Part shown: in pieces, positions 5,073 to 63,876 of the stretch
Numbering within the stretch: position 1 is the stretch's first letter
Layout: each line of letters opens with the position of its first letter
Assembly (NCBI GenBank): GCA_024518585.1
Contig: JANIHI010000001.1
Span: forward strand, 62,001 to 126,000
Reading direction: 5' to 3'
Length of the DNA stretch: 64,000 nt
Source of the DNA: Methanolinea sp.
GTDB lineage: Archaea > Halobacteriota > Methanomicrobia > Methanomicrobiales > Methanospirillaceae
Program-made: the position numbers and the translations under genes
The notes under the pieces: model-generated
What the model saw: the letters and a program-made list of their open reading frames with translations, nothing else
Told to the model about the DNA's origin: nothing
Databases searched by the model: none

Positions 5073-5138
5073 AAATTACCACGTGATTATCTCCCGGGCC
5101 TCGCGCATTCCTGGATATCCGGGACCCAATTTCGACGG

Positions 5139-5200
5139 AACCGCCCATGACCACCGGTAGGTCGATCAGGTTAGTCGACCATCATGGAGTGATTTTCTCC
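5139..5200 (+). repeat. Dispersed repeat family A, copy 1
   Basis: Shares AACCGCCCATGACC with the copies at 29255, 33207 and 40486. First stem GACC/GGTC; second stem ATCAT-GGA-GTGAT, closed by a G-T wobble. Compared with copies 2 and 3 the second stem is changed on both arms. The copy lies in the 279-base gap between the L12 gene and the antiporter. The most diverged of the four. Confidence 0.6.
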
Positions 5201-5332
5201 CGGAAAAACGTATCTTCCATGGGGATTCTTTCCTGCCCCGGTACCGGGCCCGGATTGCCGATTTTGCCGGGGGCACGCGTTGCGGTACATATCCCATTGC
5301 CTTATATCTGATTTCCTTCAACTATCCTTCTC

Positions 5333-13820: not shown

Positions 13821-13853
13821 CTGCCCGTGCCGATCGGATTTTTTCCTCTTCGT

Positions 13854-14058
13854 TATTTCAAGTGGCTACGTTGTATGAAGGTCGTGTAAGGATATTACTG
13901 TAAAAACGAAACTCCGATCCTACCCGGTCACTGCGTACAGTCACTAAAACCTTCGCCGGGGCGCACTGCCGGCGGTAGCGGAACTATCCCCATGGGTGGC
14001 GTGGGGGGGGGAGGCAGCCCCCACTTTTGGTTCCTTCCTATCCACCCATCCAAAATAG
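13854..14058. repeat. Dispersed repeat family B, copy 1
   Basis: The left ~25 bases (caagtggctacgttgtatga) and the right ~100 bases (from CGCCGG...GCGGAACTATCC through GAGGCAGCCCCC and GGTTCCT to TCCACCC) match copies at 33617 and 63671, while the middle ~80 bases differ. Contains stems CGCCGG/CCGGCG, GGAAC/GTTCC and GGGGG/CCCCC. Lies between msrA and the 3' end of the minus-strand kinase gene and fills most of the 305-base gap. Confidence 0.75.
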
Positions 14059-29233: not shown

Positions 29234-29320
29234 GGGAGACGGGGGTTTTTCTCCAACCGCCCGTGACCGCAGTGCGGTTGGGCATAAATAGCGAGAATGG
29301 CGAAGCCATTTTCATTGGAA
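29234..29320 (+). repeat. Dispersed repeat family A, copy 2
   Basis: Core 29255-29320: AACCGCCCGTGACC, stem GACCGC-AGT-GCGGTT, linker ggcataaa, stem AATGGC-GAA-GCCATT ending TTTTCATTGGAA. A preceding GGGAGA...TCTCC stem at 29234-29254 is partly shared with copy 3. About 95 bases upstream of the TIM-barrel gene. Confidence 0.75.
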
Positions 29321-33186: not shown

Positions 33187-33272
33187 AGGAGAGTGGATTT
33201 TCTACCAACCGCCCATGACCGCCGGGCGGTCGAGCATAAAGCATGAAAATGGCGAAGCCATTTTCATTGGAA
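33187..33272 (+). repeat. Dispersed repeat family A, copy 3
   Basis: Core 33207-33272: AACCGCCCATGACC, perfect stem GACCGC-CGG-GCGGTC, linker gagcataaa, then GAAAATGGC-GAA-GCCATTTTC (nine perfect pairs) and ATTGGAA. The best-preserved copy. Directly upstream of the amt promoter, but on the opposite strand from amt. Confidence 0.8.
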
Positions 33273-33616
33273 AAGGATACAATGCCGCTCAGCCCCAATG
33301 GAGAATGATCAAGGAGGAGGATGGCCCGGGCACAAGGAGCCTGGCCATCCCGAGAACGCAGGTGCCGATTACAAATTCGGCAAATCGGAGATCGGGAGGA
33401 CTGATATGAATGCTACATATCAGGCCTCCACGGGATACCCTGACTTTCCTTCGCGTAAAGGACGTATCCTTTTATGACCAGGTAACTGGGAAACATGGGA
33501 GCGATTTCCATGATATAAGAAGGAAGTTACTTTCATATATTATATATATTTTTTGATTAACGTGGGAGAGAGGAGACCCTCTCAAAAGGGACCAGAGATT
33601 AAAAAATCCCTCTTCA
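33273..33616. other. Non-coding stretch between repeat A copy 3 and repeat B copy 2
   Basis: About 340 bases without a credible gene. It contains an AT-only tract (catatattatatatatttttt near 33534-33554) followed by a perfect GAGAGG-AGAC-CCTCTC hairpin at 33568-33583. No protein-like frame; possibly the remnant of mobile-element insertions or an unrecognised RNA promoter and terminator. Confidence 0.45.
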
Positions 33617-33819
33617 TCATTTTAGGTGGATACGTTGTATGAATGGGGTATAGTCTCTCGCTGGATTGAGCTGGTGAATCAAAAAAATATCGACTTGATG
33701 CAAAATGAATGGTGAAACCGCCGCCGATGGCGCCCTTTTGTGGCGGCGGAACTATCCTCGTGGGGGGCATGGGGGCGAGGCAGCCCCCCCTTATGGTTCC
33801 TAACCACCCACTCAAAAGA
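33617..33819. repeat. Dispersed repeat family B, copy 2
   Basis: Most complete copy. Starts tttaggtggatacgttgtat and ends taaccacccactcaaaa, giving an imperfect terminal inverted repeat (TTTTAGGTGG versus TTTTGAGTGGGTGG on the other strand). Inside are CCGCCGCC/GGCGGCGG, GGAAC/GTTCC and GGGGGGC/GCAGCCCCCC stems. It ends 16 bases after the 3' end of minus-strand glnA. Homology with copy 3 spans the full length. Confidence 0.8.
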
Positions 33820-33835
33820 GCGAAGAGAAAAAAAA

Positions 33836-35164
33836 TTAATAAATTGCCAGGTAACGGTCCAGTTCCCAGGGATGGACCGCGAGCCGGAACAGGTCTGTCT
33901 CCAGTTGTGCAATGGAATTCAGGCCATCCATGATATGGGAACCCATGGCCTTGGCAATGACAGGATCTTCATTTAATGCCGTATTTGCCTCGATGAGACT
34001 GCCGGGGAGCATCTCTATCCCGCGTTTCTTCCTCTCTGCTTCCGAGAGATGGTAGATGTTGACATCCGTGCTCTCCGGGGGCATGGTCTTCTTCTTGATC
34101 CCATCAAGACCCGCGGCAAGCATCGCGGCAAAGCAGAGGTACGGGTTGCACATCGGGTCAGGACTCCTGAACTCGGCCCTTGTACTGTTCCCGCGGGCTG
34201 CCGGGACCCTGACGAGCGCCGACCTGTTCGTGGCACTCCAGGTGATATAGACCGGGGCTTCGTACCCGGGGACGAGTCGTTTGTACGAGTTGATCGTCGG
34301 GTTTGCGACCCGGGTTATCGCTTTTGCATGGGCGAGAATGCCGCCAATGTAGTACATCGCGATATCCGAGAGTCCATCCTTTGCATTGGAATCATAAAAT
34401 GCATTCTTTCCATTTTTCGCGAGGGACCCGTGGGTGTGCATTCCGCTGCCGTTAATCCCCCCAATGGGCTTGGCCATGAACGTCGCATGGAGGTTTCTTG
34501 CGAGTGCCAGGGTCTTTGTCGCGAACTTGAACGTGATGACCTTGTCTGCCGTGTCGAGGGCATCGCTGTACTTGAAGTCGATCTCGTGCTGGCTCTCTGC
34601 CACTTCATGGTGGGATGCCTCGATCTCAAATCCCATCTGGGTAAGTGCAAAAACGATATCCCGCCTGACATCTTCCGCGGCATCGGTGGGTGCAAGGTCG
34701 AAGTACCCGCCGTAGTCCTGGTAATTGGTCGAGGGCCTCCCGTCAACCATCTTGAAGAGGAAAAATTCCAGCTCAGGTCCGGTATTGAACGTAAAACCCA
34801 TTTTCTTTGCCTGTTCGAGTTGCTGCCTCAAGACGAAACGCGGGTCACCCTCAAAGGGCTTGTTCCCGTACGTGTAGACATCGCAGATGAAACGTGCCAC
34901 CCGGGCATCTGCCGGCCTCCAGGGGAGGATTGCGTACGTGGCAGGGTCGGGTTTCAGGAGCATGTCAGATTCTTCAATCCGGGCAAAGCCTTCAATGGAG
35001 GAGCCATCGAACCAGATCCCCTCCGTCAGGGCCTTTTCAGCCTGTTGAACCGGGATCGCAACATTCTTTGGCATGCCCTGGATATCGGTAAACTGGAGCC
35101 GGAGGAACCTGACTTCGTCAGATTCAATCCGTTCCAGCATCTCGGACACGGTGTCTTTCCGCAT
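33836..35164 (-). CDS. glnA: Glutamine synthetase, type I
   Basis: Converts glutamate, ammonia and ATP to glutamine. The 442-residue GSI has the beta-grasp N-domain (LQFTDIQGMPKNVAIP), EGIWFDGSSIEGF, the ATP/metal signature GINGSGMHTHGSLAKNGKN (near 241) and NRSALVRVPAARG..TRAEFRSPD. The region of the adenylylation loop (NIYHLSEAERKKRG) belongs to the GSI-alpha form, which is not adenylylated. It is divergent from the glutamate synthase operon, so GS and GOGAT share a ~113-base control region. Confidence 0.97.
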   Translation of the reverse strand: MRKDTVSEMLERIESDEVRFLRLQFTDIQGMPKNVAIPVQQAEKALTEGIWFDGSSIEGFARIEESDMLLKPDPATYAILPWRPADARVARFICDVYTYGNKPFEGDPRFVLRQQLEQAKKMGFTFNTGPELEFFLFKMVDGRPSTNYQDYGGYFDLAPTDAAEDVRRDIVFALTQMGFEIEASHHEVAESQHEIDFKYSDALDTADKVITFKFATKTLALARNLHATFMAKPIGGINGSGMHTHGSLAKNGKNAFYDSNAKDGLSDIAMYYIGGILAHAKAITRVANPTINSYKRLVPGYEAPVYITWSATNRSALVRVPAARGNSTRAEFRSPDPMCNPYLCFAAMLAAGLDGIKKKTMPPESTDVNIYHLSEAERKKRGIEMLPGSLIEANTALNEDPVIAKAMGSHIMDGLNSIAQLETDLFRLAVHPWELDRYLAIY

Positions 35165-40349: not shown

Positions 40350-40485
40350 GCTCTCCCCATCCCATCATTATATATATCGGGAACAGGGAATGGGAGAGGG
40401 AGGAAATGCACGGTATTCTTCGTCATTTCGACCGCCGGGAAATCACCTCCCTCACCGAGAGGGTGTCCGGCCGGGATACCTGTTG

Positions 40486-40552
40486 AATGACCCATGACCG
40501 CCGTGCGGTCGGGTAAAACGTCGAAAAAAATCACGGAGTGATTTTCATTGAA
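40486..40552 (+). repeat. Dispersed repeat family A, copy 4
   Basis: GACCCATGACCGCCGTGCGG start; stem GACCGC-CGT-GCGGTC; then AAATCAC-GGA-GTGATTT and TCATTGAAA. The second stem uses ATCAC/GTGAT where copies 2 and 3 use ATGGC/GCCAT. Lies ~20 bases upstream of the protease start, so it would be in or next to the protease leader. Confidence 0.75.
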
Positions 40553-40573
40553 ATCCAGCAGGAGTAGGAGTCC

Positions 40574-43060
40574 ATGGAAGTGAACCGGAAATATCTGCTT
40601 GTCCTGGTCTGTCTCTCTCTCATCACTTCCTGCTTCCCCGCGCAGGTGATCGCCGGCCCTGGCCTCGGGGGAGGGGACGACCCCCGTGGAATGTGGACGA
40701 ACGTGAGCGATCCTTTTCCTGGTGTCACCAACTACCACGAATGGATTCCAGTGCCGACCCTGGCGCAGGGTACCTCGGCTGATCTCAATATCTCTCAGAA
40801 GAGGACGGACGTCAAATCTCTTCTGAAAAATATGACTTTTCCTACATCTCGCATGATTGGGGGGAATAATACCTCCTTCCCTGTTTCAGAAGAGATGGAA
40901 AGGAGCATTGAGGAGGCAAGGGAGGCCATTTCACATTACAGGACAGCACCTGTCAATCCCCGTTTCAAAGAGGCCATTGCACGATTAAAGTCACTCAACG
41001 CTTCCATTCCCCACGGGGACGATAATTCCCTTGGATTGATCCCTTCCCCGATTGATGTTGTTTACCTGACGTCTCTTTCAAATGCGGATACCCTGACCGT
41101 CGAGGTCGCGTCGAATCCCGTGGCCACGTCTGCATGGAGCCCCTCCTCTTCTGCTTCCCCAACGCAGTACAGGTTCGACCTCCGGGCCGCCGGAAGGGTC
41201 ACCCCCGTGAAGGAACAGGGGCAGTGCGGGGCCTGCTGGGCATTTTCAACCTATGGATCACTCGAGTCCACGAACCTCCCCGGGAATGCGTGGGATTTTT
41301 CAGAGAATAACATGAAAAATACCCATGGTTTCGATATTTCCCCCTGCCTTGGGGGAAATTACCTGATGTCCACCGCGTACCTCGCCCGCTGGTCGGGTCC
41401 TGTCAGCGAATCGTCCGATCCCTACCAGGACTCAAGCAGCAGGTCACCCCAGAATGCCCCCATTGTTGCGCACGTGCAGGAGGTCACCTTCCTGCCACCC
41501 CGGACTGCGCCCCTCGATAATGCCCTCCTCAAGCAGGCAATCAGCGGGAATGGCGCCGTATACTCATCGATACGGTGGGAAAAGCAGTACTATTCTGCAC
41601 CCACGTATTCCTACTACTATCCCGGGTCCTCGGTCCAGAACCACGCAGTTACCATCGTCGGGTGGGATGATACCTACAGTCGCACAAATTTTGTCACCCC
41701 TCCCCCGGGCGACGGTGCCTTCATCGTGAAGAACAGCTGGGGGGACGACTGGGGAGAGGGGGGTTATTTCTATGTCTCGTACTATGATTCCCTCATCGGG
41801 AGGGAACTCATCCAGTTCTTCTCTGAACCTGCCGGCAACTACGACAGGGTCTACAGCTACGACCCCCTCGGCTGGGTGACGAGTGTGGGGTCGGGGGCAG
41901 AGACTGCGTATGCTGCAAATATCTTTTCTGCAGCCGGGACCGAGGAACTGGAAGCGGTCAGCTTCTATACCCCGGTCAGGGGTTCTTCCTACCAGGTCGA
42001 GGTCAGCAGGAACCCGGGAAATGGAGTCCGGGGGAGTTCTTCCCAGGTCGTTGCCATTGGCACGGTACCCTTTGCCGGGTACCATACCGTCACACTGGAT
42101 ACCCCTGTTTCCCTCGCGAAGGGAGAGAAATTTTCGGTTATCGTGAAGCTCACCACGCCGGGATACGGCTACCCCATTGCCGTTGAATGCCCGCTCTCTG
42201 GCTATTCATCCCGTGCAAGTGCCCGTTCGGGTGAGAGCTTTGTGAGTGGTGACGGCCAGTCCTGGACGGACATGACAAAAATTGTCCCCGGCGGCAATGC
42301 CTGCATCAAGGCATTCACACGGGCAAGGAACGAACCAACACCGAAACCTACACCAACGCCTGTCCCAACGACTCCTCTATCGCCATTCTCTTCAAAAGTG
42401 GACCGGACACCACCGGCGATTACCATCACCTCACCACGCCTGATGGCAACCTATTCACCCGGCGACACCATCCCGGTCGCATGGACGATTACGGATAGTG
42501 GTGGTGTCTCCACCATCAAGGTCGAATACTCGGCAGATAACGGGAATACCTGGTCTCTCCTTTATTCCGGCACTGCATCAACCGGTTCATGCTCGCTGAC
42601 CATTCCGGAAAATTTCAAGGGGAAGGTGGTTATCCGCATCAGTGCCACCGATAGAGCGGGCAATGCAGGGTCAGCATCACGGAGTGTCAGCGTCGCATCT
42701 CAGGCAGGGTCCTTTTCGGGAGGCGTCCCGGGGATAAAGGTGCCTGCACCAAGGACTGTCACCGAAAGGGAGGCCACCCCCTCTCCCATCGCAAGGGATA
42801 AAATTGCCCCCAGTCTGGGTCAGAACATGACATTCACCAGCTCGGTTGGGGTTACCCAACGGGGAAACGACCAGGAGTCTTTTCCGGTTGCAGTACTACA
42901 GGTGGCTCCCCCGTCCTCTTCTTTCGGAACGGCGGAGACACGCAAAAAAGGTCCCGATCGAGGAAAATTATTCCCTGACGGATGGAAACCCGGCCCCGTC
43001 CCATCCGGACTGGTCACGCCTGGCGTCACTCACCCTCCCTCATCTTTGACAGTGACCTGA
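40574..43060 (+). CDS. Secreted papain-family (C1A) cysteine protease with lectin-like and Ig-like domains
   Basis: An exported 828-residue protein: signal peptide (~1-28), propeptide-like region (~30-195), C1A catalytic domain (~196-425), lectin-like domain (~435-580), Pro/Thr linker (NEPTPKPTPTPVPTTP), one Ig-like domain with sugar-binding-protein character (~610-710), and a disordered tail. Catalytic residues are visible: oxyanion Gln and Cys in VKEQGQCGACWAFS, His in VQNHAVTIVGWDD, and Asn in FIVKNSWGDDWGEGGYF. Papain-like proteases of this layout occur in methanogens and are thought to act on external proteins or the cell envelope. No C-terminal anchor is evident. Confidence 0.9.
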   Translation: MEVNRKYLLVLVCLSLITSCFPAQVIAGPGLGGGDDPRGMWTNVSDPFPGVTNYHEWIPVPTLAQGTSADLNISQKRTDVKSLLKNMTFPTSRMIGGNNTSFPVSEEMERSIEEAREAISHYRTAPVNPRFKEAIARLKSLNASIPHGDDNSLGLIPSPIDVVYLTSLSNADTLTVEVASNPVATSAWSPSSSASPTQYRFDLRAAGRVTPVKEQGQCGACWAFSTYGSLESTNLPGNAWDFSENNMKNTHGFDISPCLGGNYLMSTAYLARWSGPVSESSDPYQDSSSRSPQNAPIVAHVQEVTFLPPRTAPLDNALLKQAISGNGAVYSSIRWEKQYYSAPTYSYYYPGSSVQNHAVTIVGWDDTYSRTNFVTPPPGDGAFIVKNSWGDDWGEGGYFYVSYYDSLIGRELIQFFSEPAGNYDRVYSYDPLGWVTSVGSGAETAYAANIFSAAGTEELEAVSFYTPVRGSSYQVEVSRNPGNGVRGSSSQVVAIGTVPFAGYHTVTLDTPVSLAKGEKFSVIVKLTTPGYGYPIAVECPLSGYSSRASARSGESFVSGDGQSWTDMTKIVPGGNACIKAFTRARNEPTPKPTPTPVPTTPLSPFSSKVDRTPPAITITSPRLMATYSPGDTIPVAWTITDSGGVSTIKVEYSADNGNTWSLLYSGTASTGSCSLTIPENFKGKVVIRISATDRAGNAGSASRSVSVASQAGSFSGGVPGIKVPAPRTVTEREATPSPIARDKIAPSLGQNMTFTSSVGVTQRGNDQESFPVAVLQVAPPSSSFGTAETRKKGPDRGKLFPDGWKPGPVPSGLVTPGVTHPPSSLTVT

Positions 43061-63509: not shown

Positions 63510-63670
63510 TCAGCTGTCCTTCACATATATGGTGACGGGACATGGATTAAAAGATTGGCCCGACGCCGTAGAGGGAAAGTGAAAAATTTCTTCCGGTGTT
63601 TGTCACGTCTCCAGGCGTCGTTCGCGTGGACGTAACCCCCGGGAGCTCTTGGGAAGGGAAGGGTGAATAA

Positions 63671-63876
63671 AAAATCCCCTTTGTCATTTCAATGGGGTAC
63701 GTTTCATGAATGGGTTATAGTCTCTCGCTGGATTGAACCAATTGATCCAAAAAATATCGACTAAATGTGAAATGAATGGTAAAACCGCCGCCGTGGCGCC
63801 GTTTTTGGGGATGGGGGGACTATCCTCATGGGGGTGAGGGGGGGGCGAGGCAGCCCCCGCTTTCGTTCTTCACCCG
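63671..63876. repeat. Dispersed repeat family B, copy 3
   Basis: Matches copy 2 along its full length (tacgtttcatgaatgggttatagtctctcgctggattgaa; aaaaccgccgccg; ggactatcc; gaggcagccccc). The GGCGGCGG right arm is degraded. Its right end reaches the stop codon of the minus-strand SIMPL gene. Occupies most of the 360-base gap between nusA and the window end gene. Confidence 0.75.

What the first reader, a model, noticed from the sequence alone, without database searches (positions are those of the whole stretch)
33187..33272. Repeat family A: four ~65-base elements with covarying hairpins
Copies at 5139, 29255, 33207 and 40486, all in the same orientation and all intergenic, share AACCGCCCATGACC, then two stems. 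Stem 1 is GACCGC/GCGGTC (copy 1: GACC/GGTC; copy 2: one wobble). Stem 2 is ATGGC-GAA-GCCAT in copies 2 and 3 but ATCAC-GGA-GTGAT in copy 4 and ATCAT-GGA-GTGAT (wobble) in copy 1. Both arms change together and the loop stays G-purine-A. Paired changes in a repeated sequence argue that the RNA (or cruciform) structure is selected. No known RNA family or element comes to mind.
Basis: seen in the sequence. Interest (0 to 1): 0.75.

Follow-up and report, generated by a model that had tools for sequence, protein, structure and literature searches.

The report
REP-like modular hairpin repeats in Methanolinea
The four hairpin repeats belong to a larger, spreading family of modular palindromic repeats in methane-making archaea that tend to sit just behind genes and are targets for a jumping gene, much like the REP/BIME repeats of bacteria but without the enzyme that usually goes with them.

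Summary
The four copies are real and related (DNA search E to 1e-29; covariance-model E 7e-10 to 2.5e-22). They are the core of a larger modular repeat, about 150 nt when complete. The host genome, in genus Methanolinea, has 31 copies on both strands; congeneric genomes have 0 to 82. Of 75 copies, 74 are intergenic.

Hairpin 2 covaries strongly (0/300 shuffles as good, sequence-only alignment); stem 1 does not (251/300). G-U and A-C mismatches are about equally common, so the paired changes do not show RNA selection on the strand read.

Three of the four window copies are missing at the orthologous site in near relatives, so the family is mobile or amplifying. IS110-family insertion sequences sit inside its hairpins, also in two other families of the order. 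The hairpin-2 end lies within 50 nt of the stop codon of a facing gene in 24/70 copies (7% expected); on that strand the complete type II form ends in a T-run.

Best reading: a REP/BIME-like modular repeat, probably a portable mRNA 3' end on the opposite strand. No RAYT transposase was found and no GTAG/CGTC tag was seen: REP-like, not a classical REP. The mover is unknown.

The parts
5136..5204 (+). copy 1, bare core (stem 1 of 4 bp, hairpin 2 ATCAT-GGA-GTGAT), most diverged of the four
   Evidence: model hit 48.9 bits; absent at the orthologous site in G003 and G010
29252..29320 (+). copy 2, bare core
   Evidence: model hit 72.3 bits; absent at the orthologous site in seven relatives
33204..33272 (+). 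copy 3, bare core, identical over 68 nt to a copy on contig C20
   Evidence: model hit 97 bits; absent at the orthologous site in G010, and no repeat match there in G003 or G007
40483..40553 (+). copy 4, bare core, filling the gap before the start codon of the gene at 40574
   Evidence: model hit 63.5 bits
33217..33231 (+). stem 1 of copy 3, GACCGC-CGG-GCGGTC; conserved but not covarying
33242..33266 (+). hairpin 2 of copy 3, ATGAAAATGGC-GAA-GCCATTTTCAT; covarying, and the place where IS110-family elements insert in related genomes
   Evidence: IS insertions

Best explanation
The finding is the two-hairpin core of a REP/BIME-like, modular palindromic repeat family of Methanolinea (Methanomicrobiales). 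Complete copies are about 150 nt: a left module (type I or II), hairpin A, stem 1, hairpin 2 and a TTGGAA end. Shown here: many copies per genome, almost always intergenic, tandem and mosaic arrangements, presence or absence between species at orthologous sites, compensatory variants of hairpin 2, IS110-family elements inserted in the hairpins, and a strong excess right after stop codons of genes that read into the hairpin-2 end. Inferred: the palindromes are kept as palindromes mainly at the DNA level, as units that are copied and exchanged whole. When a copy lies behind a gene, the opposite strand becomes part of the mRNA 3' end, where the hairpins and the type II T-run would help end the transcript or protect its 3' end. 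What copies the element is unknown; no Y1/RAYT transposase was found in these genomes. The bare cores in the window lack the T-run, and for them no function beyond being members of the family is shown.
For: 31 copies in the host genome, 0-82 in congeners. One of 75 copies overlaps a called gene. Tandem and mosaic units. Orthologous sites without the repeat for copies 1, 2 and 3. Hairpin 2 covaries. Hairpin-2 end within 50 nt of a facing stop codon in 24/70 copies against 7.3% at random, type II 10/19. Conserved T-run on that strand and a solo hairpin + tail form directly behind genes in two families. IS110-family insertions in the hairpins.
Against: No transcript data. Copies are also found between divergent genes and on the sense strand of neighbours; three of the four window copies are of that sort. 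The G-U/A-C counts give no clear strand for an RNA. No mobilising enzyme identified; target duplications could not be read because intergenic DNA is too diverged.
Confidence: 0.7

Rival explanations
1. A structured RNA family (small RNA or cis-regulatory element) transcribed on the strand the first reader read, with the stems selected as RNA.
For: Hairpin 2 covaries; a complete element folds better than shuffles on either strand (z about -3.5).
Against: Stem 1 does not covary. A-C mismatches are at least as common as G-U on that strand. Copies lie on both strands relative to genes. Up to 82 copies and none in a near-complete congener. Empty orthologous sites. No Rfam match.
Confidence: 0.1
2. 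A non-autonomous partner of IS110-family elements: the IS110 recombinase does not only insert into the hairpins but also copies or shuffles the repeat units in trans.
For: IS110-family elements sit within the hairpin, with the two halves of the palindrome as flanks in L089 and L109. Relatives in other families are flanked by hairpin + type II-like tail.
Against: Solo elements without an IS are the rule. The host genome and G012, both rich in repeats, have no close copy of this IS110 protein. Insertion of IS110 elements into palindromic repeats is explained by target choice alone (PMC1525189; bridge RNA, PMC11208160).
Confidence: 0.1
3. A miniature inverted-repeat element (MITE) of a DDE transposon, with the hairpins as passengers.
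For: Dispersed, non-coding, about 150 nt, recently amplified.
Against: The two ends of the full unit are not inverted repeats of each other and the left end comes in different modules. No target duplication was seen, though it could not be tested well.
Confidence: 0.07

Closest known systems
REP / BIME repeats (GTAG- and CGTC-tagged palindromic repeats of bacteria; PMC3733652, PMC2817692)
   Same: Short palindromes with alternative complementary stem residues, intergenic, mostly next to gene 3' ends, clustered in mosaic units, copy number very different between relatives, targets for insertion sequences
   Different: Longer modular unit with three or four hairpins, no GTAG or CGTC tag seen, no RAYT in 13 congeneric genomes, in an archaeal order; the tagged families of PMC3733652 are all from bacteria
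REP-targeting IS110-family elements (IS621, ISPpu9, ISPpu10, ISPa11; PMC1525189, PMC11208160)
   Same: An IS110-family (DEDD) element found inside the hairpin of a dispersed palindromic repeat
   Different: Methanogen hosts; the bridge/seek RNA of this element was not worked out here
MITEs
   Same: Non-coding, dispersed, about 150 bp, amplified
   Different: No terminal inverted repeats joining the two ends; the ends are modular
Archaeal T-run transcription terminators (general knowledge)
   Same: The type II form ends in a T-run on the strand of the gene it follows
   Different: A repeated, mobile sequence rather than a site evolved in place; no transcript data

Membership tests
REP/BIME (GTAG/CGTC-tagged) | repeated, intergenic palindrome in many copies | tested here: met
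   31 copies; 74 of 75 not overlapping a called gene
REP/BIME (GTAG/CGTC-tagged) | GTAG or CGTC tetranucleotide at the foot of the palindrome | tested here: not met
   seen directly: the conserved flanks of stem 1 and hairpin 2 hold no such tag
REP/BIME (GTAG/CGTC-tagged) | cognate RAYT (Y1) transposase in the genome (GTAG class) | tested here: not met
   PF01797 and NF047646: 0 of 13 congeneric genomes, controls ring; the host assembly is 96.5% complete
REP/BIME (GTAG/CGTC-tagged) | clusters with mosaic or inverted units | tested here: met
   tandem cores and inverted joined units
REP/BIME (GTAG/CGTC-tagged) | location next to gene 3' ends | tested here: met
   24/70 within 50 nt of a facing stop codon, 7.3% expected
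MITE of a DDE transposon | terminal inverted repeats | tested here: not met
   seen directly: left ends (type I, II) and right end (TTGGAA) are not inverted copies of each other
MITE of a DDE transposon | target-site duplication | tested here: inconclusive
   orthologous intergenic DNA too diverged
Known RNA family (Rfam 15) | score above the family's gathering threshold | tested here: not met
   only a tRNA in the window and a neighbouring tRNA at L148
Transcription terminator | RNA 3' ends at the T-run | not testable with these tools
   only position and T-run seen

The most novel reading that the evidence does not exclude
An order-wide, RAYT-free class of archaeal mobile palindromic elements that insert behind genes as portable transcription 3' ends, share a hairpin + GTATGCNTGTG + hairpin + T-run architecture across families of Methanomicrobiales, and are spread by, or co-evolve with, IS110-family RNA-guided recombinases.
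Probability: 0.15. Interest if true: 0.65.

Novelty: new variant of a known kind. Interest (0 to 1): 0.45.

Why it matters
Work on REPs rests on bacteria and on RAYT transposases. A REP-like family with mosaic hairpin units, 0 to 82 copies between congeners and no Y1 transposase found, in a methanogen lineage, suggests that such repeats can spread without RAYTs. It offers a natural system for asking what spreads them, whether palindromes are kept at the DNA or RNA level, and whether mobile repeats supply archaeal transcription ends.

Tried and rejected
A first genome pattern with wrong spacing missed the copies and was replaced. The genome contigs pattern scan returned many unrelated bacterial matches besides the Methanolinea ones. 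Rfam gave only tRNAs above threshold. Covariation of the short type II hairpin was not clear-cut. Exact insertion boundaries and target duplications could not be read from orthologs. For copy 4 the flanks are too diverged in relatives to call presence or absence. RAYT as the mover was rejected for lack of any match. The RepRanger survey of REPs includes archaea, but the archaeal genomes in its table shown to me are not of this order.

Full report
Observation. The four copies exist as described, on the + strand and between called genes. A DNA search of the host genome (1.78 Mb, 96.5% complete) finds close copies, the best identical over 68 nt with E 1e-29. A covariance model of 26 copies finds 31 in the host genome on both strands, 82 in G012, 32 in G005 and none in the five-contig G007. 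Public records of the carriers are Methanolinea and a Methanoregulaceae archaeon.

Anatomy. Many copies continue 5' of the reported part with a third hairpin, ATGAAAATCGC-GGAT-GCGATTTTCAT or a relative. Before that comes one of two left modules: type I, GAAACGCACATGAGACTGTCGGGTCACATGCCCCCTG, or type II, AAAAAACCACATGATTCTCTTCGAGACACA..GATACAAA. Copies occur in tandem, share hairpins between neighbours, and join inverted units. In G012 many units carry another middle module, ATGAACTCCTTTCAGGATTTCGGACATAAAT, in place of stem 1. The four window copies are bare cores.

Structure. On 26 copies, 7 of 11 pairs of hairpin 2 change on both sides and none of stem 1 do. On 70 distinct copies found and aligned by sequence only, hairpin 2 has 79 cells changed on both sides against 30 in shuffles (0/300 as high); stem 1 has 3 against 4.4 (251/300). 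A covariance-model alignment does show paired changes in stem 1, which I read as the alternative middle module of G012 being aligned to it. Mismatch types do not favour the strand read: GU 56, AC 73. Counted on the opposite strand together with the type II hairpin, GU is 94 and AC 71, one-sided p 0.04, not corrected for relatedness. Maintenance at the DNA level, or exchange of whole hairpins, fits at least as well. That choice is inference.

Mobility. Window copy 2 is missing at the orthologous site in seven relatives: 33 nt between the aligned flanks in G010, about 230 nt without the repeat in G003, 367 nt here. Copy 3 is missing in G010, and G003 and G007 give no repeat match between the orthologous flanks; G005 does have a repeat in that intergenic region. 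Copy 1 is missing in G003 and G010. Near-identical copies in the host point to recent spread. No Y1 or RAYT transposase is found in 13 congeneric genomes, while the control genomes ring.

IS110. An IS110-family element (PF01548 and PF02371) lies inside hairpin 2 in L089, L083 and L109; both halves of the hairpin are visible as flanks in L089 and L109. A relative lies inside a type II hairpin in G009 (L218). Further relatives in two other families of the order are flanked by the same hairpin and a type II-like tail (L219-L221, L227). Insertion of IS110-family elements into REPs is a known relation (PMC1525189; bridge RNA, PMC11208160).

Position and likely action. One of 75 copies overlaps a called gene. 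The hairpin-2 end lies within 50 nt of the stop codon of a gene running towards it in 24 of 70 copies, against 7.3% for random intergenic placement, and in 10 of 19 type II copies. Read on that strand, the type II form ends with ATCATGTGGTTTTTT. A solo form, hairpin plus this tail, occurs directly behind genes in Methanolinea and in G064 of another family. The tail was found in 10 of 13 congeners, in two neighbouring genera and in family f5. I infer that copies behind genes contribute transcription ends or 3' protection on the strand opposite to the one reported. That archaeal transcription commonly ends at T-runs is general knowledge, not tested here.

Caveats. Gene calls are from my own codon-usage caller, not curated. 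The distance thresholds were chosen after seeing the data. Copies within a genome are related, so p values are optimistic. The model E-values for copies used to build it are in-sample.

Comparison. The family works like REP/BIME repeats in position, clustering, compensatory stem variants and IS targeting, but fails two defining features of tagged REPs (the tag, and a RAYT for the GTAG class; PMC3733652, PMC2817692). It is best called a REP-like modular palindromic repeat: a new variant of a known kind. No description of it was found in the papers searched.

Noticed in passing
window 13845-14027, 33602-33836, 63669-63863: A second repeat family of about 230 nt with the ending GGCGGAACTATCCTCATGGGGG..GAGGCAGCCCCC; more than 20 copies in the host genome and many in G010. 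In G000:C16 it lies directly beside a copy of the present repeat (3 nt apart).
   Followed up: partly
L012 and L022 (G000:C1:66223-66291 and C22:66694-66762): A further shared module, GGTATGTAAATCATAAATGG..GATCAACCTGAATCCACATGAGGGTCAGGTTGAG, joined to the repeat on either side.
   Followed up: no
L148 3000-3242 (G000:C8): A complete type II copy fills the gap between a gene and a convergent tRNA gene, its T-run ending about 10 nt from the tRNA 3' end.
   Followed up: partly
L063 1440-1560 and other loci: A longer palindrome around the same kind of hairpin, CAACAGGCCCGACGCATGAAAATGCCGGGGGCATTTTCATGCATAGGGCCTGTTG, in several Methanolinea genomes.
   Followed up: no
L089 3580-5031: A second, complete-looking transposase-like gene (483 aa) beside the IS110 element; its family was not looked up.
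   Followed up: no
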